NCBI GenBank assembly: GCA_020721585.1
Contig: DYMK01000005.1
Coordinates: 1-64,000 of the forward strand
DNA length: 64,000 nucleotides
Source of the DNA: Sulfuricurvum sp.
GTDB taxonomy: Bacteria > Campylobacterota > Campylobacteria > Campylobacterales > Sulfurimonadaceae
Reading direction: 5' to 3'
This document shows, piece after piece, positions 16,896 to 29,207 of this stretch. The translations under genes were made by a program, and so were the position numbers. How positions within the stretch are numbered: the stretch's first letter is position 1; each line of letters starts with the position of its first letter. The notes under the pieces are model-generated. The model was given only the letters and a program-made list of their open reading frames with translations, ran no database searches and was not told where the DNA came from.

Positions 16896-17822
16896 ATGAA
16901 AATAGTTATTTTAGATGCGCTAACGTATGGCGATACCGCATTAGAGGCGTTTTATGAGCTGGGAGAGGTGTCTGTTTATGCGACCACTTCATCCGAAGAG
17001 ACCCTTGAGCGTGTCCGTGATGCGGAGGTGATTGTGACCAATAAAGTGGTCATTACCGATGCAATTATGGAAGGCTCTCCCCATCTTCGTCTTATTTGTG
17101 TGGCAGCAACCGGCACCAATAATATTGACCATGAAGCTGCCGCGCGTCGTACCATTACGGTTAAAAATGTAGCGGGATATTCGACCGATGCGGTGGTGCA
17201 ACACACCTTCTCAATGCTGTTTTATCTCATGGGGCAGAGTCGCTATTACGATGACTATGTCAAAACGGGTGGGTGGCAAAAAGAGGCAGTTTTTACCCAT
17301 ATTGGTCCTTCCTTCAGTGAATTACGGGGGAAAACGTGGGGGATTATAGGCTTGGGTGCAATAGGTCGTGGTGTGGCGCACATCGCATCCGCCTTTGGGG
17401 TCAACGTTGTTTATTATTCGACATCAGGAAAAAATGACAATGGCGACTTTGAAAAAACGACCCTCAGTCGACTGATCGAAAACAGCGATATTATCTCGAT
17501 CCACGCACCGCTAAATGCTTTGACGGAAAATCTCATTTCCCATTCAGAACTGTTACAGATGAAAGATGGGGCAGTCTTGCTCAATCTTGGTCGGGGGGGA
17601 ATCGTCGATGAAGAAGCTCTTGCGGTCATTATTGATGTCAAACCAATTTATGTTGGTTTGGATGTGTTACGTCAAGAACCGATGAAAACGCGACATCCTC
17701 TCTTAGCGATCAAACACCCAAATCGTCTCTATGTCACCCCTCATATCGCATGGACATCCCGTGAAGCACGCGAACGATTGATTGCTTCAACGGTGGAAAA
17801 TATTAGAACGCTTACGGATTGA
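16896..17822 (+). CDS. D-2-hydroxyacid dehydrogenase (glycerate dehydrogenase/hydroxypyruvate reductase-like)
   Basis: 308 aa. It reduces a 2-keto acid such as hydroxypyruvate with NAD(P)H; the exact substrate cannot be read from sequence. The Rossmann glycine motif GLGAIGRG is near residue 150. The catalytic arginine is in LLNLGRGGIVDEEAL, the glutamate follows in VLRQEP, and the histidine is in TPHIAWTS. The N-terminal catalytic half has the family segment CVAATGTNNIDHEAA. The start ATG 16896 is confirmed by the duplicated N terminus at 14749. A hairpin carrying two regulator-type boxes follows its stop. Confidence 0.88.
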   Translation: MKIVILDALTYGDTALEAFYELGEVSVYATTSSEETLERVRDAEVIVTNKVVITDAIMEGSPHLRLICVAATGTNNIDHEAAARRTITVKNVAGYSTDAVVQHTFSMLFYLMGQSRYYDDYVKTGGWQKEAVFTHIGPSFSELRGKTWGIIGLGAIGRGVAHIASAFGVNVVYYSTSGKNDNGDFEKTTLSRLIENSDIISIHAPLNALTENLISHSELLQMKDGAVLLNLGRGGIVDEEALAVIIDVKPIYVGLDVLRQEPMKTRHPLLAIKHPNRLYVTPHIAWTSREARERLIASTVENIRTLTD

Positions 17823-17887: not shown

Positions 17888-17931
17888 ATTGACTCAGGTC
17901 AAGAATATAATTTGACCTGAGTCAATTTTTT
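17888..17931 (+). terminator. 15-bp stem plus T6, likely terminator of the dehydrogenase gene
   Basis: The two inverted boxes form a perfect stem (17888-17902 with 17912-17926) with a 9-nt loop, followed by a run of T to 17931. It has the form of an intrinsic terminator 66 bp after the dehydrogenase stop, superimposed on regulator sites of the next promoter. Confidence 0.6.
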
Positions 17932-17953
17932 GATCTACCGAAAATGATACAGT
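17889..17953 (+). promoter_or_regulatory. Two TTGAC-N4-GTCAA boxes and extended -10 of the porin promoter
   Basis: TTGACTCAGGTCAA (17889-17902) and its exact reverse complement TTGACCTGAGTCAA (17912-17925) are separated by 9 bp. The proximal box is centred 32 bp before the centre of TACAGT (17948-17953), which has an upstream TG (extended -10). That places it at about -41.5, the class II position for Crp/Fnr activators. The same box and spacing occur before the cytochrome c gene and napA. Confidence 0.7.
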
Positions 17954-17982
17954 TCTCTTATATTTAATATAGGGATGTAAAA

Positions 17983-19218
17983 ATGAAATATTTAGTATTG
18001 TCTACTATTTTAGCGTCGGTGTTTTTTGGTGCCGCACCTTTGAGCGCAGAGGATTTTAGCCTCTTAAGCCATCCAAAATTCAATGGCGAAGTACGCGCCC
18101 GTTATGAAAACGTCGATGACCAAAGTAATACCAAAAGTCAAGCCAACGCCTATACGGTACGCGCAACCCTTGGACTTAACGCCAATGTGTTTGGTCTGGA
18201 TGCCCTTACGATGAAAGTGGAGGGAACCACCGTACAAGCCATAGGACCACAATACTACTTTGATGGTACCTACAATGGGATGACCACCTACGATACGGTC
18301 GTAGATCCCGTTCAAACCCGATTTGACCAAGCTTATCTCCAGTACAAAGTGGGCAAAACCACCATCAAAGCGGGTCGTCAAGTGATCAATTTGGACAACC
18401 AACGGTTTATTGGATCGGTGGATTGGCGACAAATGATGCAAAGCTTTGATGCCGTACTGCTCACCGATACCACCGTCGATAATCTCACCTTAACGGGGGG
18501 GTATATCCGCAGTATCGCAGGGATTACCAATGCTCCAGTGACATTGAGAAATCGTGGTAATTCGATTGTGTTAAATGGATCGTATAAATTCAATGATATG
18601 CTCAAAGTGACCGCGTATGACTATAGGCTCGCTTCAACACACGACACAGCAGGAGTGGCACTTACGGGAGATGTCCCCCTTGGTATCGCTAAAATTGGGT
18701 ATCGTGCGGAATATGCCCGACAAGGGGATGCTTCACAAGAGAGTCTAGGGGGGATCAAAAATGCCCAAGCCGATGCCCACTATTATAACCTTGATGCCCT
18801 TGCCAATGTCAGTGGGGTCTTGGTGGGTGCAGGATACGAAGTGCTAAGTGGTTCCACCGGAAGTGATGGTAAAACCGCCTTCCAAACCCCGCTAGCAACC
18901 CTCCATGCGTTTAATGGATGGGCGGATAAATTTCTTACGACCCCAACAGGGGGATTATGCGATGCCAGTGCAACGTTTGGGTACACCTCTCCTGCGTTGG
19001 GAAAAGCAGTGATCGTCTATCATAATTTTAACACCGATCACGCCATGGCAACCAAAAGTGACCTTGGGCATGAGTGGGATATGCTCTATACCAATGCTAT
19101 CCCAAGTGTTAAAGGGTTAAGTGGTCTTATCAAAGCGGGCTATTATAAAGCAGGGGATGTTGCAACCTTTACCAAAGATGTTTCTAAAGTGTGGCTGCAA
19201 CTCGATTATAAATTTTAG
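17983..19218 (+). CDS. Outer-membrane porin-like beta-barrel protein
   Basis: 411 aa. A signal peptide covers about residues 1-22 (LVLSTILASVFFGAAPLSA). The mature part is made of alternating amphipathic strands (EVRARYENV, YTVRATLGLN, QAYLQYKVGKTTIKAGRQ, KVTAYDYRLAST) and ends in WLQLDYKF, the terminal aromatic that directs barrel insertion by BAM. It resembles OprD/alginate-export-type porins of Campylobacterota. Its promoter carries the same Crp/Fnr-type box as nap and the cytochrome gene, so it may let nitrate, nitrite or an electron donor cross the outer membrane during nitrate respiration; this is inference. Repeats follow the stop codon. Confidence 0.82.
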   Translation: MKYLVLSTILASVFFGAAPLSAEDFSLLSHPKFNGEVRARYENVDDQSNTKSQANAYTVRATLGLNANVFGLDALTMKVEGTTVQAIGPQYYFDGTYNGMTTYDTVVDPVQTRFDQAYLQYKVGKTTIKAGRQVINLDNQRFIGSVDWRQMMQSFDAVLLTDTTVDNLTLTGGYIRSIAGITNAPVTLRNRGNSIVLNGSYKFNDMLKVTAYDYRLASTHDTAGVALTGDVPLGIAKIGYRAEYARQGDASQESLGGIKNAQADAHYYNLDALANVSGVLVGAGYEVLSGSTGSDGKTAFQTPLATLHAFNGWADKFLTTPTGGLCDASATFGYTSPALGKAVIVYHNFNTDHAMATKSDLGHEWDMLYTNAIPSVKGLSGLIKAGYYKAGDVATFTKDVSKVWLQLDYKF

Positions 19219-19234
19219 GTCTCTTGTCCTGAGA

Positions 19235-19363
19235 TTGCGGATCAAGTCCGCAATGACGAAGAGGTGTCCGCAATGACAGGGTGCGTCACCCTGAACGCTC
19301 TAACCCGTCACCCTGAACTCGATTCAGGGTCTAAAAGAGGAGATGCTGAATCACGTTCAGCAT
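19235..19363. repeat. Cluster of three dispersed hairpin repeats
   Basis: Three perfect hairpins lie in tandem after the porin gene: TTGCGGA/TCCGCAA (19235-19253), ACCCTGAA/TTCAGGGT (19310-19330) and ATGCTGAA/TTCAGCAT (19343-19363), each with a 5-nt loop. A half copy of the first lies at about 19267-19277. This is a mosaic of REP-like elements. They may end porin transcription. Confidence 0.6.
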
Positions 19364-19429
19364 GGGTAACGCCCACAATTATGTGCTTTGAAAAGAATGA
19401 AATCTGAAAAGTTTTACGAGAGGACTAAT

Positions 19430-19450
19430 ATGACGTTTGAAGTACGTCAT
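19430..19450. promoter_or_regulatory. Inverted repeat ATGACGT-N7-ACGTCAT upstream of the cytochrome promoter
   Basis: A perfect 7-bp inverted repeat lies directly upstream of the TTGAC-N4-GTCAA box at 19455. Its centre is about 21.5 bp upstream of the box centre, two helical turns, like the spacing of the two porin boxes. It could be a site for a second regulator. Confidence 0.35.
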
Positions 19451-19454
19451 TAAA

Positions 19455-19496
19455 TTGACTTAGGTCAAAGCTTTTGATGTGGAAACGATCTATAAT
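19455..19496 (+). promoter_or_regulatory. Crp/Fnr-type box and -10 of the cytochrome c promoter
   Basis: TTGACTTAGGTCAA (19455-19468) is centred 32 bp before the centre of a perfect TATAAT (19491-19496). This is class II activator geometry (about -41.5). The cytochrome ATG is 27 bp after the -10. Confidence 0.75.
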
Positions 19497-19523
19497 TTTC
19501 TATCTCAACAGTAGGAACTTTGT

Positions 19524-19826
19524 ATGAAAAAAAGTTTTATGGTAGTGGCAACATTGGTTGCTCTAGGTTTTGTAAATGTTCATGCAGCAGAAGAGGGTGC
19601 GGCGCTTTATAAAAAATGTGCAGTGTGTCATGGTGCGGCGGGAGAAAAAGCGGCACTCGGCAAAAGCAAAATCATTAAAGATATGAGTGCGGCACAAATC
19701 ACAACTGCGCTTAAAGGGTACAAAGACGGAAGCTACGGCACTGCTCAAAAAGCTCTCATGAAAGGACAAGTAGCATCTCTTAATGATGCACAAATTTCTG
19801 CACTTGCTTCACATATTTCTAAATAA
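19524..19826 (+). CDS. Small periplasmic class I c-type cytochrome (c553-like)
   Basis: 100 aa. A signal peptide (MKKSFMVVATLVALGFVNVHA) is followed by one haem-binding CAVCH at about residues 35-39 and a distal methionine candidate in ALMKGQ. The size and LYKKCAVCHG start fit cytochrome c553/c6-type electron carriers. Its promoter shares the Crp/Fnr-type box with nap, and it lies directly upstream, so it probably carries electrons in nitrate-dependent respiration. It is monocistronic, with a terminator right after the stop. Confidence 0.9.
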   Translation: MKKSFMVVATLVALGFVNVHAAEEGAALYKKCAVCHGAAGEKAALGKSKIIKDMSAAQITTALKGYKDGSYGTAQKALMKGQVASLNDAQISALASHISK

Positions 19827-19833
19827 TTTCTTT

Positions 19834-19855
19834 TCACCCTTTGGGGTGATTTTTT
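19834..19855 (+). terminator. Intrinsic terminator of the cytochrome c gene
   Basis: TCACCC and GGGTGA form a 6-bp stem closed by a 4-nt loop, followed by TTTTTT (19850-19855), 7 nt after the stop codon. Confidence 0.8.
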
Positions 19856-19951
19856 CAGGCAGTATTTTCTCTCTTTTACGTGATCGCATACAAATATTAA
19901 TTGCTGTTTGGAAAGATCTTGTATACCCCCTTTTTTTAGAATGACTATCAC

Positions 19952-19993
19952 TTGACTTAGGTCAATTTTTAAAATCACTTATTATATTAAAAT
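19952..19993 (+). promoter_or_regulatory. Crp/Fnr-type box and -10 of the nap promoter
   Basis: TTGACTTAGGTCAA (19952-19965), identical to the cytochrome box, is centred 32 bp before the centre of TAAAAT (19988-19993). Predicted start is about 20000, leaving a leader of about 90 nt before napA. Confidence 0.72.
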
Positions 19994-20013
19994 TATCAGT
20001 GTCAATAAAAAAA

Positions 20014-20088: not shown

Positions 20089-22875
20089 ATGCAAGAAAGT
20101 CGTAGGGATTTTTTAAAAGCCAGTGCTGCAACAGCTGCTGCTGCTGCAGTGGGTATGACATTGCCAAGCGAAGTTGAAGCTGCGTCCAAGGCGGGTGAGT
20201 CAGGATGGCGTTGGGACAAAGCAGTATGCCGTTTCTGCGGAACGGGATGCGGTGTTATGGTCGCAACCCAAAATGATAAAATTATTGCGGTCAAAGGTGA
20301 CCCTGCAGCTCCAGTAAATAAAGGGCTCAACTGTATTAAGGGATATTTCCTAGCCAAAATTATGTACGGTGCAGACCGTTTAACTCAGCCGTTGTTACGT
20401 GTCGATGCAAGCGGAAATTTCAGTAAACAAGGAAAATTCCAACCCGTAAGTTGGCAAAAAGCATTTGATGTAATGGCGTATAAATTTAAAGAGACGTATG
20501 CTAAAAATGGTCCAACTTCAGTTGGTATTTTTGGATCTGGTCAATATACTATTCACGAAGGCTATGCGTCGCTTAAACTGATGAAAGCAGGCTTTCGATC
20601 TAATAATATTGACCCTAATGCACGTCACTGTATGGCATCTGCGGTTACTGGATTTATGCAAACATTCGGTATCGATGAACCGGCAGGCTGTTACGATGAT
20701 ATTGAGTTAACCGATACGATCGTAACATGGGGTGCTAATATGGCGGAGATGCATCCGATTCTTTGGTCACGCGTATCCGATCGTAAACTCACCAACAAAG
20801 CAAAAGTAAAAGTAGTCAATCTCTCTACCTATACACAACGTACTTCGGATTTGGCGGATATTGAGATTATTTTTCGACCAAGTACCGATTTGGCAATCTG
20901 GAACTACATTGCACGTGAGTTAGTTTACAACGCTCCTGAATCCATCGACTGGAAATATGTCAAAGAGAACTGTGTATTTGCGACAAGCTGGGTCGATACG
21001 GGATATGGAATGCGTAACAACGCCAACCATCCAAAATTTAAAGCATCTGAAAAAGATACGGTAGCCAAAGAGGTTGCAAAAAAAGTTGGCGCGTTAGAGG
21101 GTCCTGCACTCAAACCGTTCGGGTATGAGACAGGTGAGACCATGAAAATGACGCACAATGCAACGGCTGCGGAAAACTGGGTTATTACGTTTGAAGAATT
21201 TAAGCGTGGTTTAGCACCGTATACTCTCGATTATGTTGCGAGTGTTGCTAAAGGAAATCCAGATGAGGATACCGAAGCATTCAAGAAAAAACTCAAAGCA
21301 CTTGCCGATCTTTACATCGAAAAAGGGCGTAAAGTTGTTAGTTTCTGGACAATGGGCTTCAATCAGCACACACGTGGTACATGGGTAAATTCTCAATCAT
21401 ACATGGTTCATATGTTACTTGGTAAACAATCCAAACCAGGTTCTGGGGCATTTTCACTCACTGGTCAGCCATCAGCATGTGGAACAGCACGTGAAGTAGG
21501 AACCTTTAGTCACCGTCTCCCTGCGGATATGGTCGTTATGAATCCAAAACATCGTGAACACTCTGAACACATCTGGAAAGTTCCAGCAGGAACGATTAAC
21601 CCTGTTGCAGGTAGTCATTATGTACAAATTATGCGTGATTTAGAAGACGGTAAAGTGAAATGGGCATGGGTTCAGGTTAATAACCCATGGCAAGATACCG
21701 CCAATGCAAACCACTGGATTAAAGCAGCGCGTGAGATGGATAATTTCATCGTCTGTTCGGATGCTTATCCGGGTATTTCAGCAAAAGTAGCCGATTTGAT
21801 TCTACCATCGGCGATGATATATGAAAAATGGGGTGGATACGGCAATGCTGAGCGTCGAACTCAACAATGGAAACAGCAAGTTACTCCAGTTGGTCAAGCG
21901 ATGGGTGATTTGTGGCAAACGGCAGAATTTGCCAAACGCTTCACCCTTGCCGAAGTGTGGAAAGAGTGGAAAATTAACGATAAAGTGACGATCCCAAGTG
22001 TACTGAGTGAAGCTCAAAAAATGGGATACAAACCGACCGATACCTTGTTTGATGTTTTGTTCGCCAATAAAGAGGCAAAAAGCTACAAATGGCCAGATCC
22101 AATCGGGAAAGGGTTTGCTAATACTGAAGCGGGCGGTGATAAACGTAATGTCCTTGGTTCTGATGGCAAGCCGTTTAAAGGGTATGGTTTCTTTATTCAT
22201 AAATACATTTGGGAAGAGTATCGTAAATTCGGTCTCGGGCATGGGCATGACTTAGCCGATTTCGACACCTATCACCGTGTTCGTGGTTTGAAATGGCCGG
22301 TAGTCAATGGCAAAGAGACGCAATGGCGTTTTAACGCTAAATACGATCCGTATGCGAAGAAAACAGGGCGTGAGTTTGCTTTCTACGGTGAATTTAGCAA
22401 AGTGATCCAACAAGGAACATTGACCGGTCCTGATGCATCCAAACCAAAAGTGGATTTGCACAATAAAGCCAAAATCTTTATGCATCCATACATGGAGCCG
22501 CCTGAAACTCCGAGCAAAGAGTACCCATTGTGGCTTTGTACCGGTCGTGTGCTTGAGCATTGGCACTCTGGAACGATGACCATGCGTGTACCTGAACTCT
22601 ATCGAGCAGTTCCAGAAGCTCTTTGTTATATGCATCCTCAAACGGCTAAAGATATGGGGGCAAAAGACGGTGAATTGGTATGGGTTGAATCACGTCGTGG
22701 CAAAGTAAAAGCCCGTGTTGAAACACGAGGACGCAACCGACCACCTAAATCATTGGTATTTGTCCCTTGGTTCGATGAAAAAGTTTATATTAATAAAGTA
22801 TGTTTAGATGCGACCTGTCCGATTTCTAAACAAACCGACTATAAAAAATGTGCAGTCAAGGTCTATAAGGCTTAA
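20089..22875 (+). CDS. napA: Periplasmic nitrate reductase catalytic subunit
   Basis: 928 aa molybdopterin enzyme reducing nitrate to nitrite in the periplasm. The twin-arginine signal SRRDFLKA is at residues 4-11, followed by an Ala-rich core. The [4Fe-4S] cysteines are C47, C50, C54 and C82. The Mo-ligand cysteine is in [11 protein letters not shown]. The C-terminal half binds the bis-MGD cofactor. The length is that of Campylobacterota NapA, longer than the E. coli form. It heads the napAGHBFLD operon; napG starts 3 bp after its stop. Expression is probably driven by the Crp/Fnr-type promoter upstream. Confidence 0.98.
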
Positions 22876-22877
22876 CC

Positions 22878-23690
22878 ATGGCAACGGAAAAACAGCCCCC
22901 GATGAGTGAACGTCGCCGATTTTTATTGCAAGCATTGCAAGGAATCGGGTTAGCAACGCTTGGGGCATTGACATGGAGTGCATACATTGATGAAGCGAGT
23001 GCTGCATCAATGGTGCTGCGTCCTCCTGGGGCATTGAGCGAAGAAGATTTCTTAGCACACTGTATTCGTTGCGGGTTATGTGTTGAAGTATGTCCATACG
23101 ATACGCTTCGTCTTGCCCGTGCTGGAGATAATATTCCGATAGGAACTCCTTATTTTATCGCGCGGGAAATCCCGTGTTATATGTGTAAAGACATCCCCTG
23201 TGTCCCACCGTGTCCTACAGGTGCGTTGGAGGAGTCATTGGTCATGAAAATGGCGAAAGACGGACACAAAGTCTTCGATATAGGTATGGCGAAAATGGGG
23301 ATTGCGGTGATTGATTCGGATCAGTGTGTCGCTTTTTGGGGTGTTCAATGTGATGCTTGTTATCGAGCGTGTCCGCTGATCAATGAAGCGATTGTGATCG
23401 ATCATAGTCGAAATGATCGGACGGGGAAACATGCCCTGCTGGTGCCTCGTGTCATCGGTGATGTGTGTACCGGATGCGGAATGTGTGAAAAAGCGTGTAT
23501 TACCGAAAAAGCCTCTATTTTTGTCTTGCCGTTGTCGGTTGCAAAAGGGAAAGCTGGAAGCAATTACATCAAAGGGTGGGATGAAAAAGATGAAAAACGG
23601 CTGGAGACTCAAAAAGGGGGCGGTGAAACGACCACAACCCCGACCAGTTCTCAAAAACCGGTCGATTATCTTAATGATGAGGAGTTTTAA
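22878..23690 (+). CDS. napG: NapG ferredoxin-type quinol dehydrogenase subunit
   Basis: 270 aa periplasmic iron-sulfur protein that with NapH passes electrons from menaquinol towards NapB/NapA. A Tat-like signal (ERRRFLLQ, then a hydrophobic stretch) covers residues 1-40. Four cysteine clusters for [4Fe-4S] centres follow: CIRCGLCVEVCP, CYMCKDIPCVPPCP, CDACYRACP with C in SDQC, and CTGCGMCEKAC. The C-terminal tail is polar and low complexity. It overlaps the napH start by one base. NapC is absent from the operon, so NapGH must be the quinol route, as in Wolinella. Confidence 0.97.
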   Translation: MATEKQPPMSERRRFLLQALQGIGLATLGALTWSAYIDEASAASMVLRPPGALSEEDFLAHCIRCGLCVEVCPYDTLRLARAGDNIPIGTPYFIAREIPCYMCKDIPCVPPCPTGALEESLVMKMAKDGHKVFDIGMAKMGIAVIDSDQCVAFWGVQCDACYRACPLINEAIVIDHSRNDRTGKHALLVPRVIGDVCTGCGMCEKACITEKASIFVLPLSVAKGKAGSNYIKGWDEKDEKRLETQKGGGETTTTPTSSQKPVDYLNDEEF

Positions 23691-24508
23691 TGGAGTGGCT
23701 AAAAAAACACCAATTTTTAATTCTTCGCCGTTTGACACAAATTTCAATGATAGTTCTTTATTTCGGATCACATGCATGGGGATGGAAAGTTCTCGAAGGT
23801 AATTTAGGGAGTTCATTGGTTATGGGGACAATCCCTTTAGCAGATCCGTTTGCGGTAGTGCAAATGTCTGCTGCGGGTGCGTTGCTAGGATTGGATGTAC
23901 TTATCGGAGCTGCCATCATAACGCTATTTTATGCCATTGTCGGCGGGAGAGCTTTTTGCAGCTGGGTGTGCCCGATCAACATGGTGAGTGATGCTGCCAA
24001 TGGGTTACGCCGTGTCTTACGGATTAACGAAGTGGAGCGTCGAGTTGTCATCAGCCGGCATCTTCGCTATTGGGTATTAGTGCTCTCTATCGCCCTTTCA
24101 GCGATTTTTGGAGTTGCGGCATTTGAATTTATCAGTCCTATCGGGATGCTCAATCGTGGACTTATTTTTGGAATCGGATTTGGTGGAGCCGTAGTGGCAG
24201 GTGTTTTTCTCCTCGATTTATTTGGGGTGAAAAACGGATTTTGCGGTCATCTGTGTCCGTTGGGGGGATTGTATTCGCTCATCGGCCGATTCAGTGTGAT
24301 CCGTGTAAAACACAATCAGGAAAAATGTACGTTGTGTATGAAATGCACCGCTATTTGTCCTGAAAAACCGGTTTTGCATATGATCGGTAAACGAAGCGAA
24401 TTTGTCGCCATGGGTGAGTGTACCAACTGCGCTCGCTGTATTGAAGTGTGTGATGATGACGCTTTAAATTTTGATATTCGCTTATTTAAACAACAAAATA
24501 AGGAGTAA
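23690..24508 (+). CDS. napH: NapH membrane quinol dehydrogenase subunit
   Basis: 272 aa integral membrane protein with about four transmembrane helices (around residues 15-30, 65-85, 120-145 and 155-175). Two CxxxCP loops (CSWVCPIN and CGHLCPLGG) face the cytoplasm in known NapH/NosR-type proteins. Two [4Fe-4S] motifs, CTLCMKCTAICP and CTNCARCIEVC, are at the C terminus. It oxidises menaquinol and hands electrons to NapG. It is translationally coupled to napG, and a good AAGGAG site precedes napB just downstream. Confidence 0.97.
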   Translation: MEWLKKHQFLILRRLTQISMIVLYFGSHAWGWKVLEGNLGSSLVMGTIPLADPFAVVQMSAAGALLGLDVLIGAAIITLFYAIVGGRAFCSWVCPINMVSDAANGLRRVLRINEVERRVVISRHLRYWVLVLSIALSAIFGVAAFEFISPIGMLNRGLIFGIGFGGAVVAGVFLLDLFGVKNGFCGHLCPLGGLYSLIGRFSVIRVKHNQEKCTLCMKCTAICPEKPVLHMIGKRSEFVAMGECTNCARCIEVCDDDALNFDIRLFKQQNKE

Positions 24509-24512
24509 ACAC

Positions 24513-25097
24513 ATGAAACGTAATGTGATTAGTATCGTAACCACCGTAATATTAGGGAGTACATTACTCTTGGGTGCAGGTAAAGAGGTTCAGATCGCTG
24601 AAGAGTCGTTAGGACTTTCAAAAGTAAGTGTTGATGCAGATAGCGGTTTGGTTGAAAAACCTTTTGTCTATAAAGGAACGGCTCCAGGAGCTGGGAACAA
24701 ACGGATTCCAAGAGCGTATGACAATGCACCACCGATGATTCCGCATGACATCAGTGAGTTGCCAATTATCACTCAGGAAGAAAACACGTGTACCTCGTGT
24801 CATATGCCAGAAGTTGCACCGAGTGTTGGAGCTATACCGATTCCTAAAACGCATTTGACCAATCTTCGGAATATGACGGATCTCAAAGGGGAACTGTATC
24901 AAGGACGATGGAATTGTACACAGTGTCATGCACCCCAGGCTGTACTTGATCCTGCAGTAATGAATAAATTCAAAGGGGCGTATCATAAGAAAATCGGTGG
25001 CGAATATAAAACAAACTTGATTAAAACTCTCCGTGAAGGTGTAATGGAAGATGCCTCAGGCTTGTTTGATCTTAATAAAGATTTGGTAGCAGAGTAA
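24513..25097 (+). CDS. napB: NapB dihaem cytochrome c subunit of nitrate reductase
   Basis: 194 aa from ATG 24513 (the frame is open further upstream, but AAGGAG at 24500 and a signal peptide fix this start). A signal peptide covers residues 1-20. Two haem sites are visible, CTSCH near residue 93 and CTQCH near residue 133; NapB carries two bis-His haems and delivers electrons to NapA. The C-terminal region after the second haem is longer than in E. coli NapB. NapF starts 2 bp downstream. Confidence 0.97.
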   Translation: MKRNVISIVTTVILGSTLLLGAGKEVQIAEESLGLSKVSVDADSGLVEKPFVYKGTAPGAGNKRIPRAYDNAPPMIPHDISELPIITQEENTCTSCHMPEVAPSVGAIPIPKTHLTNLRNMTDLKGELYQGRWNCTQCHAPQAVLDPAVMNKFKGAYHKKIGGEYKTNLIKTLREGVMEDASGLFDLNKDLVAE

Positions 25098-25098
25098 T

Positions 25099-25602
25099 AT
25101 GGATTCACGTCGCGGATTTTTTACCTCGTTGGTTGCACTCGCTATGGGAGGAGGGAAGAAGAAAAAACCTTTTCATCCCTTTCTTCCTGGCTTTATCACC
25201 GAGAATAGTGATAACTGTCTGAGCTGTACGACCTCTGCTTGTAAAAAAGTTTGCGAAGAGGGGATTATTGTTCATGAAGATGCAAGGATCCCTTATCTTG
25301 ATTTTTCACGACGTGGATGCACCTTTTGCGGTGAGTGTATCACTGCGTGTGAAAGTGATTGTTTTGTTGCAGAGCCAATTACGTCGCTAAAAGCTGAAGT
25401 CAAAATCGGTATTTTAAGCTGTTTGGCGTGGAATAAAACTATCTGTCGCAGTTGTGCTGACGTCTGTAACGATAAAGCGATACAATTTACCGGATTATGG
25501 AATCCTGAGATTGATTCAAACGCATGTACTGCATGCGGCTTTTGTGTTGGTGTATGTCCAGCCTTTACGATCACACTCCATCCTCTAAAGGAGAGAGTGT
25601 GA
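25099..25602 (+). CDS. napF: NapF cytoplasmic ferredoxin-type protein
   Basis: 167 aa. It starts MDSRRGFF with no signal peptide and has four cysteine groups for [4Fe-4S] clusters: CLSCTTSACKKVC, CTFCGECITACESDC, CRSCADVC and CTACGFCVGVCP. NapF interacts with NapA in the cytoplasm in enteric bacteria and is thought to help its iron-sulfur or cofactor maturation. Its stop overlaps the GTG start of napL by 4 bp (GTGA). Confidence 0.95.
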   Translation: MDSRRGFFTSLVALAMGGGKKKKPFHPFLPGFITENSDNCLSCTTSACKKVCEEGIIVHEDARIPYLDFSRRGCTFCGECITACESDCFVAEPITSLKAEVKIGILSCLAWNKTICRSCADVCNDKAIQFTGLWNPEIDSNACTACGFCVGVCPAFTITLHPLKERV

Positions 25603-26534
25603 AATCTTTTTTGTTTGTATTGTATTTCTCTCTAACACTTTATGCAGGGGTGATTTTTCCGAAAGTGAGTGTGAAAACCTCTTCACCAGTTTTGGATTTT
25701 GTGGTGAGAGGAGGAGATATTTGGGCAGGAACCGCAAACGGTGAAGCTTTGCAAATCACCGCAAAAGGTAAAATCATTTCCAAAAAAATGCTTCCGACTA
25801 TCGAAGATTCATGGGGTAAAAAAATAAAGCAAAAAATTATGAGTATCGATCTCTCATTAGATACTAAAACCCTAATCGTAGCAGGAGAAGATGGATGGCT
25901 GTACACGATTCGTGAGGGGAAAATTACTAAAACTACTTATTCCACCAAAACGGTCGTGAAAAAAATAGCCTTTATTTCGGATACGAAAGTGATGTTGGCA
26001 TTGTTGAGTAATGAGGTGGTATTTTTTGATCTGAAAACCAATCGGATTATGAAAACGCTCAGTGGAGGGACTTCACCGCTGAGTGATATGGCGTTATCTA
26101 CAGATAAAAAAACAGCGGTTATTGTAGGAGAGGCAGGAATTGTTTCAGTGATCAATACGGCTGCAATGAAAATCACGCGTCGTATTCAGGGGGGGAATGT
26201 CGATAATATTTATAAAGTAGATATCCAAAACAATCGTGTTCTCACCGCCGGTCAAGATCGCCGAGCGATACTCTACACCTTAGATGGAAAAAGTTATTCC
26301 CGTTTTGATGGTTCTTTTTTAATCTACACCGTAGCCCTCTCACCGAGTGCAGGCGTGATGGCAGCTGCGATGGATGAAGAGAACCTTATCAGTGTTTTTG
26401 ACACGATCAAACGTCAAAAATTTTTTACGGCAAAAGGGCACAGTGCGACGCTGAATCGTATAGCGTTTATCGATGAAAAACGGTTCGTATCGTGTGCTGA
26501 TGAAAATAAAATTCTATTTTGGGAGTTACCATGA
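25599..26534 (+). CDS. napL: NapL, WD40-like periplasmic protein of the nap operon
   Basis: 311 aa from GTG 25599, which overlaps the napF stop. A signal peptide covers about residues 1-17 (VKSFLFVLYFSLTLYA). The rest is a repeated beta pattern typical of a WD40/YVTN propeller (VAGEDGWLYTI, VIVGEAGIVSVIN, TAGQDRRAILYTL, SVFDTIKRQKF, SCADENKILFWEL). NapL is specific to Campylobacterota nap operons; its role is not established, with assembly or NapA maturation suggested. The operon position is as in Wolinella. It overlaps napD by 4 bp. Confidence 0.92.
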   Translation: MKSFLFVLYFSLTLYAGVIFPKVSVKTSSPVLDFVVRGGDIWAGTANGEALQITAKGKIISKKMLPTIEDSWGKKIKQKIMSIDLSLDTKTLIVAGEDGWLYTIREGKITKTTYSTKTVVKKIAFISDTKVMLALLSNEVVFFDLKTNRIMKTLSGGTSPLSDMALSTDKKTAVIVGEAGIVSVINTAAMKITRRIQGGNVDNIYKVDIQNNRVLTAGQDRRAILYTLDGKSYSRFDGSFLIYTVALSPSAGVMAAAMDEENLISVFDTIKRQKFFTAKGHSATLNRIAFIDEKRFVSCADENKILFWELP

Positions 26535-26878
26535 ATATATCAAGTGTTGTCGTTAAATGTGCGCCAGAGTATATAGCATTCGTGCTAGAACAATTACAAA
26601 CAAGTAATCAGTGTGAGGTTTACGCTCACGATGAGTTGGGTCGAATCATTATCATTTTAGAGGGTGAAACGACAGAAGAAGAGTCTGAAAAACTCCGTAT
26701 TATTCAAGACATACCCCATATTTTATCGGCTGAAATGGCGATGGCTTACAGCGAAAGTGAATTCTCTGATGAAGAGGGGAAATTAGAACGCGTTGATGAG
26801 CAGCTTATGGAACGTTTGAACGCAGATGATGTGGATGCCAAAGACATCGTTTATCATGGACACCTAAAGGATAAATAA
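26531..26878 (+). CDS. napD: NapD chaperone for the NapA Tat signal
   Basis: 115 aa from ATG 26531, which overlaps the napL stop (ATGA). It starts MNISSVVVKC and has the small ferredoxin-like alpha-beta fold pattern of NapD (IIILEGET, then AEMAMAYSE). NapD binds the twin-arginine peptide of NapA and holds back export until the cofactor is in place. It has a charged C-terminal extension of about 30 residues. The next gene starts on its stop codon (TAATG), so the operon does not end here. Confidence 0.94.
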   Translation: MNISSVVVKCAPEYIAFVLEQLQTSNQCEVYAHDELGRIIIILEGETTEEESEKLRIIQDIPHILSAEMAMAYSESEFSDEEGKLERVDEQLMERLNADDVDAKDIVYHGHLKDK

Positions 26879-27399
26879 TGAAAACCCTCTGTATCGAAAC
26901 AGAAGTTCCCAGCGATGAGCTGATTGTATCGCATACGAATCTTTATGGAATCATTACCTATGCTAATGACACTTTTGCTGATATTAGTGGATATGAGATG
27001 GAAGAGCTGATTGGAAAACCGCATAATATCGTTCGTCATCCCGATATGCCTTCATCGTTGTTTGCCAATCTATGGGAAACCTTGGGTGAAGGAAAAATGT
27101 GGTCAGGCTATGTGAAAAATCTTCGTAAAGATGGTGGATTTTACTGGATATACGCACAAGTTTCAGGGTTATTGGATAAAAATGATAATTTAATCGGGTA
27201 CAAATCGCTTCGCGCACCGGTTGAGAGTACCAAGCGCCATGAACTCGAAGGTAATTACGCTCGACTCAAAGAGATGGAAGAAAATATAATCAAGCTCAGT
27301 GAGTGGATTGATCATGAAACATTCAAGAAACTTGAAGCACTTTCACAGCAAAAAAATTGTTCTATTAGTGAAATTCTTAAAGAGATAATAAGTCAATAA
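26878..27399 (+). CDS. Stand-alone Aer/CetB-type PAS protein, probable flavin redox sensor
   Basis: 173 aa, soluble. Residues about 18-115 form a PAS domain strikingly like the FAD-binding PAS of the aerotaxis receptor Aer: ANDTFADISGY, GKPHNIVRHPDMP, WSGYVKN-RK-G and YWIYAQV all have counterparts there. A helical tail and a final CSISEILKEIISQ follow, without HAMP, kinase or chemotaxis domains. In Campylobacter jejuni the PAS-only CetB works with the membrane protein CetA in energy taxis. Here the gene is coupled to napD and followed by a Crp/Fnr regulator and a membrane sensor, so it may report redox state to nap control. FAD binding is inferred from similarity. Confidence 0.8.
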   Translation: MKTLCIETEVPSDELIVSHTNLYGIITYANDTFADISGYEMEELIGKPHNIVRHPDMPSSLFANLWETLGEGKMWSGYVKNLRKDGGFYWIYAQVSGLLDKNDNLIGYKSLRAPVESTKRHELEGNYARLKEMEENIIKLSEWIDHETFKKLEALSQQKNCSISEILKEIISQ

Positions 27400-27403
27400 C
27401 ACA

Positions 27404-28057
27404 ATGAATTTTGACCAAGTGGCTAAAAAATTAGCTTTGTTTCAGGGACTCTCTTCTCGTGATTTGGAGTTGATTGCAGCACAATCATCAACAAAAACGT
27501 TTGAGAAAGGAGAACTCCTTTTCTACGAGGGAGATGATCTTCTGTATTGGTATTTTGTAGTTGATGGAATTTTACGTTCGTATAAACTCTCCCATGACGA
27601 GCATGAAATCTCTATTTGCTATAACGAATCGTCGATGGCACTCAGTGATATTCGTTTTGAGAACCATCGCTATGTCACTAGAATGTTTGGTACTATCGAA
27701 GCACAAACCAAAGGGACGCTGATTGGGATAAAAACATCGGCTTTATCGCTGTTGTTTACCCAAAGCCCTGAGTTTTCTCTTCGATGTTTTCACAGTGTTT
27801 TGGTGAGTGTAGAGAACTATCAGCGTACTTTTTTTAACAATATGGTTCTCGATGCGATGGGAAAAGTTGCTTTTATGCTTTCTCATGAACTTGATAAATT
27901 TAACCGACTTAAAAAACAGGAAATCGCAGCATTGTTGAATATACAGCCAGAAACGCTGTCGCGTTTGCTGGGAAAATTGGTTCGTAAAGAGATTATTGCA
28001 CTTGATGGCTCAATCAGTGTTTTAGACCCTAACGCGCTTAAATTACTGTATAATTAG
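27404..28057 (+). CDS. Crp/Fnr-family transcriptional regulator
   Basis: 217 aa. An N-terminal cyclic-nucleotide-binding-type beta barrel (GELLFYEGDDLLYWYFVVDGILRSYK), a long dimer helix (about 110-140) and a C-terminal winged helix: KKQEIAALLNIQPETLSRLLGKL. The recognition helix has ExxSR, the contact pattern of Fnr-type proteins for TTGA half-sites. Only two scattered cysteines are present, so there is no FNR iron-sulfur cluster; the signal may be NO through haem (as in DNR/NssR-like proteins), nitrate or redox. It is the obvious candidate to bind the TTGAC-N4-GTCAA boxes at the nap, cytochrome c and porin promoters, and lies 4 bp after the PAS gene. Confidence 0.9.
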   Translation: MNFDQVAKKLALFQGLSSRDLELIAAQSSTKTFEKGELLFYEGDDLLYWYFVVDGILRSYKLSHDEHEISICYNESSMALSDIRFENHRYVTRMFGTIEAQTKGTLIGIKTSALSLLFTQSPEFSLRCFHSVLVSVENYQRTFFNNMVLDAMGKVAFMLSHELDKFNRLKKQEIAALLNIQPETLSRLLGKLVRKEIIALDGSISVLDPNALKLLYN

Positions 28058-28068
28058 AGAAAAAAATT

Positions 28069-29079
28069 ATGAAAAAAATAACCTCTCGAATCAAAATTAT
28101 CAGTTTTATCCTTTCCTTATTGCTTGTTAGTTTAATCGCTATTACCGTTTATATGAATAAGCAAAGCAAGCATGATGGCTATGTTATTCATATCGTTGGT
28201 AAAGAGCGAATGTTATCCCAAAAAATGGCAAAAGAGCTTTTTTTAAATCTCCACCGTACGTCAGCTGAATTTTCTCCTTTTAGTGAAGCTAAGAATGAAT
28301 TTATGCTCAATCTCAAATCTCTCCAAAGCGGAACTCAAGATGGAAAAATCACCCGACCTCCGACGGATGAGATCGCTTTACGTCTTGAAAAAATAAGCAA
28401 CTTAAGTGATCGATTTTTTAGGTTAGCCGAAACGATCAAAGTGAAGATTGAGTTAAAATCCCCCCCTTCTGAAGAGGAGATTTCCGAACTCTACCAGCTC
28501 AACAATCTTCTTTTAGATCAAATTGATCAAACTGTCCATATTTATACGGCTGCTTCTGAGAAGAAGATAGATCGCCTTCAGTGGATTCAGTATATTGGAG
28601 CTTTTGTAACCCTCATAGCAGTGATCGGCAGTATATTACTCAGTAAAAAGATTGATGAAGAGTTTGACCGCTTTTTAAGCAATGCCAAAGAGGTTTCTCA
28701 AATTCGTTGTGAGGATCTACATACAGAACCTCGTATCTCTACAGAATCACAAAGCGAGCTGATGCAGGCCGAATCGGATATGAAAACCTTTTTATTGCAT
28801 GTTGAAAAAGTGGTGCATAGAGCGCAAAGTGCGTTGATCGAATCGCAAAATACGTTGGTGCAAATCGAAGATGCAGCTAAAACAATGGAACAGCAGCTCT
28901 CGCAAACCTCCCTTAGTGATCCATCCAAAGCTGAAATCGAAGACTACATTGATATATCTGAAAATCTGACCATTAATTCACTTGAAAAGATAGCAAAAAC
29001 TCAGCAGATGCTCGATAAATTTCAAGGGATGTTGGAAAAAATCGTGGTTAAAATGGAGCAGAAGGATTCACCCTCTTGA
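28069..29079 (+). CDS. Orphan PilJ/NarX-type membrane sensor without output domain
   Basis: 336 aa. TM1 at about residues 9-29, a periplasmic helical domain of about 145 residues, and TM2 at about 175-195. The periplasmic part starts HIVGKERMLSQKMAKE, the PilJ_N motif that in NarX/NarQ-type sensors binds nitrate. The cytoplasmic part (196-336) is a long coiled coil (VVHRAQSALIESQNTLVQIED) with no kinase, HAMP signature, GGDEF or methyl-accepting hairpin that I can recognise. It must act through a partner, perhaps the PAS or Crp/Fnr protein encoded just upstream. It is the last gene of the nap transcription unit (11-bp gap). Nitrate binding is inferred. Confidence 0.75.
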   Translation: MKKITSRIKIISFILSLLLVSLIAITVYMNKQSKHDGYVIHIVGKERMLSQKMAKELFLNLHRTSAEFSPFSEAKNEFMLNLKSLQSGTQDGKITRPPTDEIALRLEKISNLSDRFFRLAETIKVKIELKSPPSEEEISELYQLNNLLLDQIDQTVHIYTAASEKKIDRLQWIQYIGAFVTLIAVIGSILLSKKIDEEFDRFLSNAKEVSQIRCEDLHTEPRISTESQSELMQAESDMKTFLLHVEKVVHRAQSALIESQNTLVQIEDAAKTMEQQLSQTSLSDPSKAEIEDYIDISENLTINSLEKIAKTQQMLDKFQGMLEKIVVKMEQKDSPS

Positions 29080-29207
29080 CCTATGGCAAGAAAAATTTTT
29101 CTATTTTAAGCGATACTCTTGTACCGCCAATTCAAGTAATAAGTGCAACAATAAGAATCAGCCGTGTTTATTGTTAAGGTTTCGTTGTAAAATTTAAAAG
29201 TTTTAGC

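What the first reader, a model, noticed from the sequence alone, without database searches (positions are those of the whole stretch)
17889..19993. Shared TTGAC-N4-GTCAA box at class II position in three respiratory promoters
TTGAC(Y/T)(C/T)AGGTCAA-type palindromes occur at 17889, 17912, 19455 and 19952 and, scanning by eye, at no other full match in the window. For the porin, cytochrome c and napA promoters the proximal box centre is exactly 32 bp upstream of the centre of a plausible -10 (TACAGT with upstream TG, TATAAT, TAAAAT). That equals about -41.5 from the start, the class II site of Crp/Fnr activators. This defines a small regulon: porin, electron carrier and nitrate reductase. The likely regulator is the Crp/Fnr protein at 27404.
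Basis: partly seen in the sequence, partly recalled or inferred. Interest (0 to 1): 0.78.

Follow-up and report, generated by a model that had tools for sequence, protein, structure and literature searches.

The report
Nitrate-respiration promoters sharing one activator site
Three neighbouring promoters for nitrate breathing in a sulfur-oxidising Sulfuricurvum bacterium share one regulator-binding sequence at exactly the right distance from their start sites, and its probable regulator gene is, across many related bacteria, almost always next to a gene for a nitrate-sensor-like membrane protein, which makes the open question of how these regulators sense nitrate testable.

Summary
TTGAC-N4-GTCAA occurs exactly four times in the window, and those four are the only ones in the whole 2.29 Mb genome. 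They lie before the porin, cytochrome c and napA genes. In all three promoters a TAnnnT -10 sits exactly 32 bp from the proximal box centre.

Across 41 genomes of the genus, 43 of 45 TTGACYYRRGTCAA boxes precede nap, porin, cytochrome c, nrdD, moaA or the regulator gene. In these, 91% of box-gene pairs carry TAnnnT at +32 and no other offset scores well. The geometry recurs at nap promoters of Helicobacter and Hydrogenimonas.

The regulator at 27404 belongs to a nap-associated Crp/Fnr clade whose presence tracks the box (p about 1e-10); the genome's other FNR-like paralogue does not (p = 1). Binding itself is untested.

The idea is not new in kind: Nss regulators and TTGA-N6-TCAA boxes are known in Campylobacterota. 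New to me is that 38 of 39 regulators of this clade, and none of 43 others, are encoded next to a PilJ-domain membrane protein that folds like nitrate sensors.

The parts
17889..17902 (.). distal box TTGACTCAGGTCAA; in relatives the equivalent box has its own TATACT at +32 for a divergent nnrS gene
17912..17925 (.). porin-proximal box TTGACCTGAGTCAA, centre 17918.5
17948..17953 (+). porin -10 TACAGT with TG upstream, centred 32 bp from the box centre; start predicted near 17960
17983..19218 (+). outer-membrane porin (Alginate_exp/OprD-like), regulon member; relatives sit beside nap in many Sulfuricurvum genomes
19455..19468 (.). cytochrome c promoter box TTGACTTAGGTCAA, centre 19461.5
19491..19496 (+). 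cytochrome c -10 TATAAT; start predicted near 19503
19524..19826 (+). small cytochrome c gene; box 55-56 bp upstream in the four species with an exact box
19952..19965 (.). napA promoter box TTGACTTAGGTCAA, centre 19958.5
19988..19993 (+). napA -10 TAAAAT; start predicted near 20000
20089..22875 (+). napA, first gene of napAGHBFLD
22878..26878 (+). napG, napH, napB, napF, napL, napD; gaps of 4 bp or less, or overlaps
26878..27399 (+). single PAS-domain protein between napD and the regulator
27404..28057 (+). Crp/Fnr regulator (217 aa), recognition helix QPETLSR, two cysteines only; apparently co-transcribed with nap (4 bp gap)
28069..29079 (+). PilJ-domain membrane protein without kinase or receptor output domain; fold of nitrate sensors McpN/NarQ; conserved partner of the regulator
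29076..29089 (.). degenerate box TTGACCTATGGCAA at the position where the closest relative has an exact box before moaA

Best explanation
The four palindromes are binding sites for a DNR/Nss-like Crp/Fnr activator, most likely the protein at 27404. Bound at the proximal box centred at -41.5, it activates the porin, cytochrome c and napAGHBFLD promoters as a class II activator; these promoters lack a -35 element. The regulator is the ninth gene of the apparent nap transcription unit, so activation would also raise regulator and partner (positive feedback). Shown here: site sequences, spacing, conservation, co-occurrence with this regulator clade and not with the paralogue, and the conserved pairing with a PilJ-domain protein. 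Inferred: binding, activation, and that nitrate (or a related signal) reaches the regulator through the adjacent PilJ-domain protein, for example by release from the membrane. The regulon probably extends to moaA, hcp and others with TTGAT-spelled sites.
For: Four sites only in the whole genome, all here. In 41 genomes of the genus, 45 strict boxes; 43 lie 18-125 bp before napA, porin, cytc, nrdD, moaA, nnrS or the regulator, and the other two are inside coding sequence. TAnnnT at exactly +32 in 91% of 43 box-gene pairs, mean -10 score +4.4 against -1.3 or less at every other offset from 14 to 79. 20 of 80 napA loci have a full TTGAYNNNNRTCAA box and 19 of these have TAnnnT at +32, including Helicobacter, Hydrogenimonas and Campylobacter majalis. 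Strict boxes occur in 23 of 24 genomes with a clade-A regulator and in none of 17 without (p 1.2e-10); the paralogue shows no association (p 1.0), and six box-bearing genomes lack it. In 23 further Campylobacterota, 18 have both the nap box and a clear homologue, 5 neither. Tree: 27404 groups with nap-associated regulators, apart from the paralogue and C. jejuni NssR. PilJ partner adjacent in 38/39 of the clade and 0/43 outside; it matches McpN and NarQ by sequence and fold.
Against: No binding or transcript data. Both FNR-like regulators of this genome carry PETLSR, so the helix does not tell them apart. The window's PilJ protein meets only 7 of 10 specified N-box positions, though G-x-x-R is kept. 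Many other Sulfuricurvum nap-linked regulators have QPATLSR instead of QPETLSR with the same box, which a simple recognition code would not predict. The genome counts are not corrected for shared ancestry.
Confidence: 0.82

Rival explanations
1. The boxes are bound by the other FNR-like regulator of the genome (G000:C3:16584-17204, 207 aa), or by both.
For: It has the same recognition-helix core PETLSR and is the only other regulator with a Crp-type HTH match in the genome.
Against: Boxes are as common with its orthologues as without them (17 of 30 genomes against 6 of 11, p 1.0); six genomes have boxes but no such orthologue, and two of them (G015, G031) have only the nap-linked regulator. 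It lies in a different, strongly supported clade and was not found next to nap.
Confidence: 0.12
2. The 17889/17912 pair is mainly an intrinsic terminator of the upstream dehydrogenase gene (16896-17822), not a regulatory site.
For: The pair forms a perfect 16-bp hairpin followed by a T run; z-score -6.9, no shuffle as stable. The upstream gene runs towards it.
Against: In two relatives the flanking genes diverge, so no terminator is needed, yet both boxes remain palindromic while the long stem carries mismatches. G010 keeps the proximal box, T run and -10 without the distal box. It cannot explain the cytochrome c and napA boxes.
Confidence: 0.06
3. The boxes are operators of a Crp/Fnr repressor rather than activator sites.
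For: A site next to the polymerase could also block it; a negative relation between a nap-linked Crp/Fnr and nosZ was reported in Nitrosophilus labii (PMC11539149).
Against: Exact -41.5 spacing with no -35 element in unrelated promoters is the hallmark of class II activation; Nss proteins upregulate nap in Wolinella (PMC6682613).
Confidence: 0.05
4. The repeated boxes are a chance or repeat artefact.
For: None beyond the short length of the motif.
Against: 0.05 expected per window; conservation across genera with fixed -10 spacing.
Confidence: 0.01

Closest known systems
Nss regulators of Campylobacterota (NssA/NssB/NssC of Wolinella succinogenes; nap-linked homologue of Nitrosophilus labii)
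   Same: Crp/Fnr proteins with a DNR-type DNA-binding domain; nap targets; TTGA-N6-TCAA sites; in N. labii the exact site begins 48-49 bp before predicted starts, i.e. centre about -42 (PMC11539149)
   Different: Here the regulator is the ninth gene of the nap unit, the targets include porin and a small cytochrome c, and a PilJ-domain partner is described. Direct orthology to Wolinella NssA was not tested (sequence not held).
NssR of Campylobacter jejuni
   Same: Crp/Fnr family, nitrogen-oxide response
   Different: Site TTAAC-N4-GTTAA (PMC1274295); separate clade; no nap box in C. jejuni loci.
DNR of Pseudomonas aeruginosa
   Same: Best match among solved structures (3dkw, E 1.8e-14); FNR-like box
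   Different: DNR answers NO; no PilJ partner is known to me; targets are nir, nor, nos.
HcpR of delta-proteobacteria
   Same: Same core site wyTTGACnnnnGTCAArw (PMC1274295); hcp also carries a class II box in this genome
   Different: The core HcpR regulon is hcp/frdX rather than nap.
NarX/NarQ and McpN nitrate sensors
   Same: PilJ-type periplasmic domain with G-x-x-R; fold match to McpN with TM 0.84 over the target
   Different: No histidine kinase or methyl-accepting signalling domain found; the neighbour is a Crp/Fnr activator.

Membership tests
Crp/Fnr superfamily | Crp-type winged HTH | tested here: met
   PF13545, E 7e-11, over cut-off
Crp/Fnr superfamily | cNMP-binding-like sensor domain | tested here: inconclusive
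   PF00027 26.4 bits against cut-off 27.5; 28.6 with neighbours in the frame; full-length match to DNR
FNR (oxygen-sensing, Fe-S) | four cysteines for a 4Fe-4S cluster | tested here: not met
   only Cys72 and Cys128
Nss family (NssA-type) | TTGA-N6-TCAA site at nap promoters | tested here: met
   consensus from PMC11539149
Nss family (NssA-type) | orthology to W. succinogenes NssA | not tested
   Wolinella protein not held; the N. labii homologue is reported 44.8% identical to NssA
Nss family (NssA-type) | nitrate-dependent activation of nap | not testable with these tools
   needs expression data
C. jejuni NssR | same clade and TTAAC-N4-GTTAA site | tested here: not met
   different clade; site is TTGAC
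DNR | haem/NO response | not testable with these tools
   sequence similarity only
Class II Crp/Fnr promoter | site centred at -41.5, no -35 needed | tested here: met
   box to -10 spacing 32 bp in 91% of 43 pairs; no -35 hexamer. The start itself is inferred from the -10.
PilJ nitrate sensors (protein at 28069) | PilJ domain | tested here: met
   PF13675 E 5.9e-13; fold match to McpN
PilJ nitrate sensors (protein at 28069) | full N-box [IVL][ND]xAGxQRML[ST]Q | tested here: not met
   VIHIVGKERMLSQ, 7 of 10 specified positions; exact in 20 of 35 partner proteins; pattern from PMC6381276
PilJ nitrate sensors (protein at 28069) | G-x-x-R nitrate contacts | tested here: met
   G44 and R47 invariant in 18 aligned partners; motif from PMC8199190

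The most novel reading that the evidence does not exclude
A nitrate-signalling pair not described in the papers I could search: a membrane PilJ/NarX-like nitrate sensor with no kinase or chemoreceptor domain directly controls a cytoplasmic Crp/Fnr activator. This would answer how Nss-type regulators of Campylobacterota sense nitrate, which a 2021 review calls unresolved (PMC8139620).
Probability: 0.42. Interest if true: 0.75.

Novelty: new member of a known kind. Interest (0 to 1): 0.55.

Why it matters
It gives a precise, sequence-level definition of the nitrate-respiration regulon of Sulfuricurvum and related Campylobacterota, a phylum said to lack FNR, ArcA and NarP orthologues (PMC6682613), with exact predicted start sites. 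The near-perfect pairing of this regulator clade with a nitrate-sensor-like membrane protein turns the open question of how Nss-type regulators perceive nitrate into a simple two-gene experiment.

Tried and rejected
FNR identity: rejected, cluster cysteines missing. The second FNR-like paralogue as main regulator: no association with the boxes. The third cNMP protein (C33, 202 aa): no Crp-type HTH match. TTGAC as an ordinary -35: no promoter-scan hit joins these boxes to the -10s. Terminator reading of the 17889/17912 pair: fits the window alone but not the relatives. One-mismatch strict boxes elsewhere in the genome (C30:29250, C58:31019): both inside coding sequence. nrdD, a target in relatives: no match in this genome. 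The only test of the literature on the PilJ pairing was keyword search of open papers; Kern and Simon 2016 could not be read.

Full report
Origin. The window lies in a 2.29 Mb draft genome. Two genomes of its genus share contigs of identical length with database records named Sulfuricurvum (45,627 and 25,774 bases), so this is a Sulfuricurvum species or close to it.

Check of the observation. TTGACNNNNGTCAA occurs at 17889, 17912, 19455 and 19952 and nowhere else in the window or in the genome. Chance expectation is 0.05 for the window. No -35 hexamer is present at 16-18 bp spacing.

Is the geometry real? I collected every strict box (TTGACYYRRGTCAA) in 41 genomes of the genus: 45 boxes in 23 genomes. 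43 stand 18-125 bp before one of a small set of genes: napA, two kinds of porin, the small cytochrome c, nrdD (anaerobic ribonucleotide reductase), moaA (molybdenum cofactor), a divergent nnrS, or a regulator gene (families). The two exceptions lie inside coding sequence. Scoring a -10 at each distance from the box centre gives one peak: TAnnnT at +32 in 91% of 43 box-gene pairs, mean score +4.4, against -1.3 or lower at every other distance from 14 to 79. The promoters involved are unrelated in sequence apart from these elements. Among 80 napA loci from several phyla, 20 carry a full TTGAYNNNNRTCAA box within 260 bp and 19 of those have TAnnnT at +32; they include enterohepatic Helicobacter, Hydrogenimonas and Campylobacter majalis, while C. 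jejuni, C. concisus and gastric Helicobacter have none.

Which regulator? The genome has three Crp/Fnr-like candidates, two with a Crp-type HTH: 27404 and a 207-aa protein on contig C3. Both carry PETLSR in the recognition helix, compatible with TTGA but not decisive. A tree of 82 relatives splits with full support into clade A (27404, the regulators directly upstream of nap in other Sulfuricurvum, Helicobacter and Sulfurospirillaceae relatives) and clade B (the C3 type, C. jejuni NssR and others). Within the genus, 23 of 24 genomes with a clade A regulator have strict boxes and none of the 17 without one does (Fisher p 1.2e-10); the exception, G020, has TTGACTTAGATCAA. The C3 type shows no association (p 1.0), and six box-bearing genomes lack it. 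In 23 other Campylobacterota, the 18 with a nap box have a clear homologue (E below 1e-20) and the 5 without have none or only a weak NssR-like hit; in a few of the 18 the homologue is of clade B. These counts treat genomes as independent, which they are not. 27404 follows napAGHBFLD and a PAS protein with gaps of 4 bp or less, so it is probably in the nap transcript.

Natural experiments. Where a target is missing, its site tends to be degenerate or gone. The closest relative G001 has an exact box at the end of the PilJ gene, 48 bp before moaA; in the window the next gene looks like ribosomal protein L31 and the same position reads TTGACCTATGGCAA. In G001 and G021 the left-hand box of the porin pair has its own TATACT at +32 serving a divergent nnrS; in the window that neighbour is different. 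A second nap cluster in G007 without an adjacent regulator has no box, though a second cluster in G001 keeps a TTGAT-spelled one with TATAAT at +32.

A wider regulon. Searching the genome for TTGAYN4RTCAA-N22-TANNNT gives nine exact hits: the three here and six others, of which five stand before hcp (hybrid cluster protein), moaA (53% identical to that of G001), a small cytochrome c, a hemerythrin-like gene and a cupin; one is unclear (the hcp, hemerythrin and cupin names are read from the sequence and were not run through a family library). All six have TTGAT in the first half-site. Whether 27404 or the C3 paralogue reads them is open. In other Sulfuricurvum species the regulator gene itself usually carries a TTGAT-type class II box (most of 21 have TAnnnT at +32 of the best match).

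A partner protein. The gene after 27404 encodes a 336-aa membrane protein with a PilJ domain. Such a gene adjoins 38 of 39 clade A regulators, including Helicobacter regulators away from nap, and 0 of 43 clade B regulators (two clade B loci hold one, but more than 10 kb away beside the nap-linked regulator). The profile matches McpN, PilJ and NarQ; the predicted structure (mean pLDDT 78) matches the McpN nitrate-binding domain at TM 0.84 over the target, then NarQ. Gly44 and Arg47, the G-x-x-R nitrate contacts, are invariant in 18 aligned partners. The exact N-box defined for McpN is met in 20 of 35 partners but not in the window's own. After the second transmembrane helix only a helical tail remains. 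The pairing is shown; that the protein binds nitrate and controls the regulator is inferred.

Compared with what is known. Nss proteins of Wolinella upregulate nap (PMC6682613), and in Nitrosophilus labii exact TTGA-N6-TCAA sites begin 48-49 bp before predicted starts (PMC11539149), so the regulatory logic is of a known kind. How Nss proteins sense nitrate is described as unresolved (PMC8139620). The regulon here is a new member of that kind; the sensor pairing may be new, with the caveat that the key 2016 paper could not be read.

Noticed in passing
window 28069-29079: PilJ-domain membrane protein without output domain, adjacent to 38/39 regulators of the same clade across Campylobacterota and to none of 43 other Crp/Fnr proteins.
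   Followed up: yes
window 29076-29089: Degenerate box TTGACCTATGGCAA where the closest relative has an exact box before moaA.
   Followed up: partly
L297, L298, L299, L300, L304 at 1501: Class II boxes with TTGAT spelling before hcp, a cupin, a small cytochrome c, a hemerythrin-like gene and moaA elsewhere in the genome; which regulator reads them is open.
   Followed up: partly
L198:7564-8178 and about 20 similar regulators: The nap-upstream regulators of most Sulfuricurvum have QPATLSR where 27404 has QPETLSR, yet their nap boxes are still TTGAC...GTCAA: a change at a supposed specificity residue without a change of site.
   Followed up: no
window 17888-17926: The two porin boxes form a perfect 16-bp terminator-like hairpin with a T run.
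   Followed up: yes
L193 and L197: Two relatives carry a second nap cluster (90-91% NapA) lacking the adjacent regulator and PilJ gene; one has a TTGAT-type class II box, the other none.
   Followed up: partly
window 19219-19370: The porin-cytochrome c gap holds palindromic repeat-like sequence (CCCTGAA...TTCAGGG); in relatives this place holds nrdD and nrdG, and nrdD has no match in this genome.
   Followed up: partly
window 26878-27399: A single PAS-domain protein between napD and the regulator, conserved in the clusters of this regulator type.
   Followed up: no
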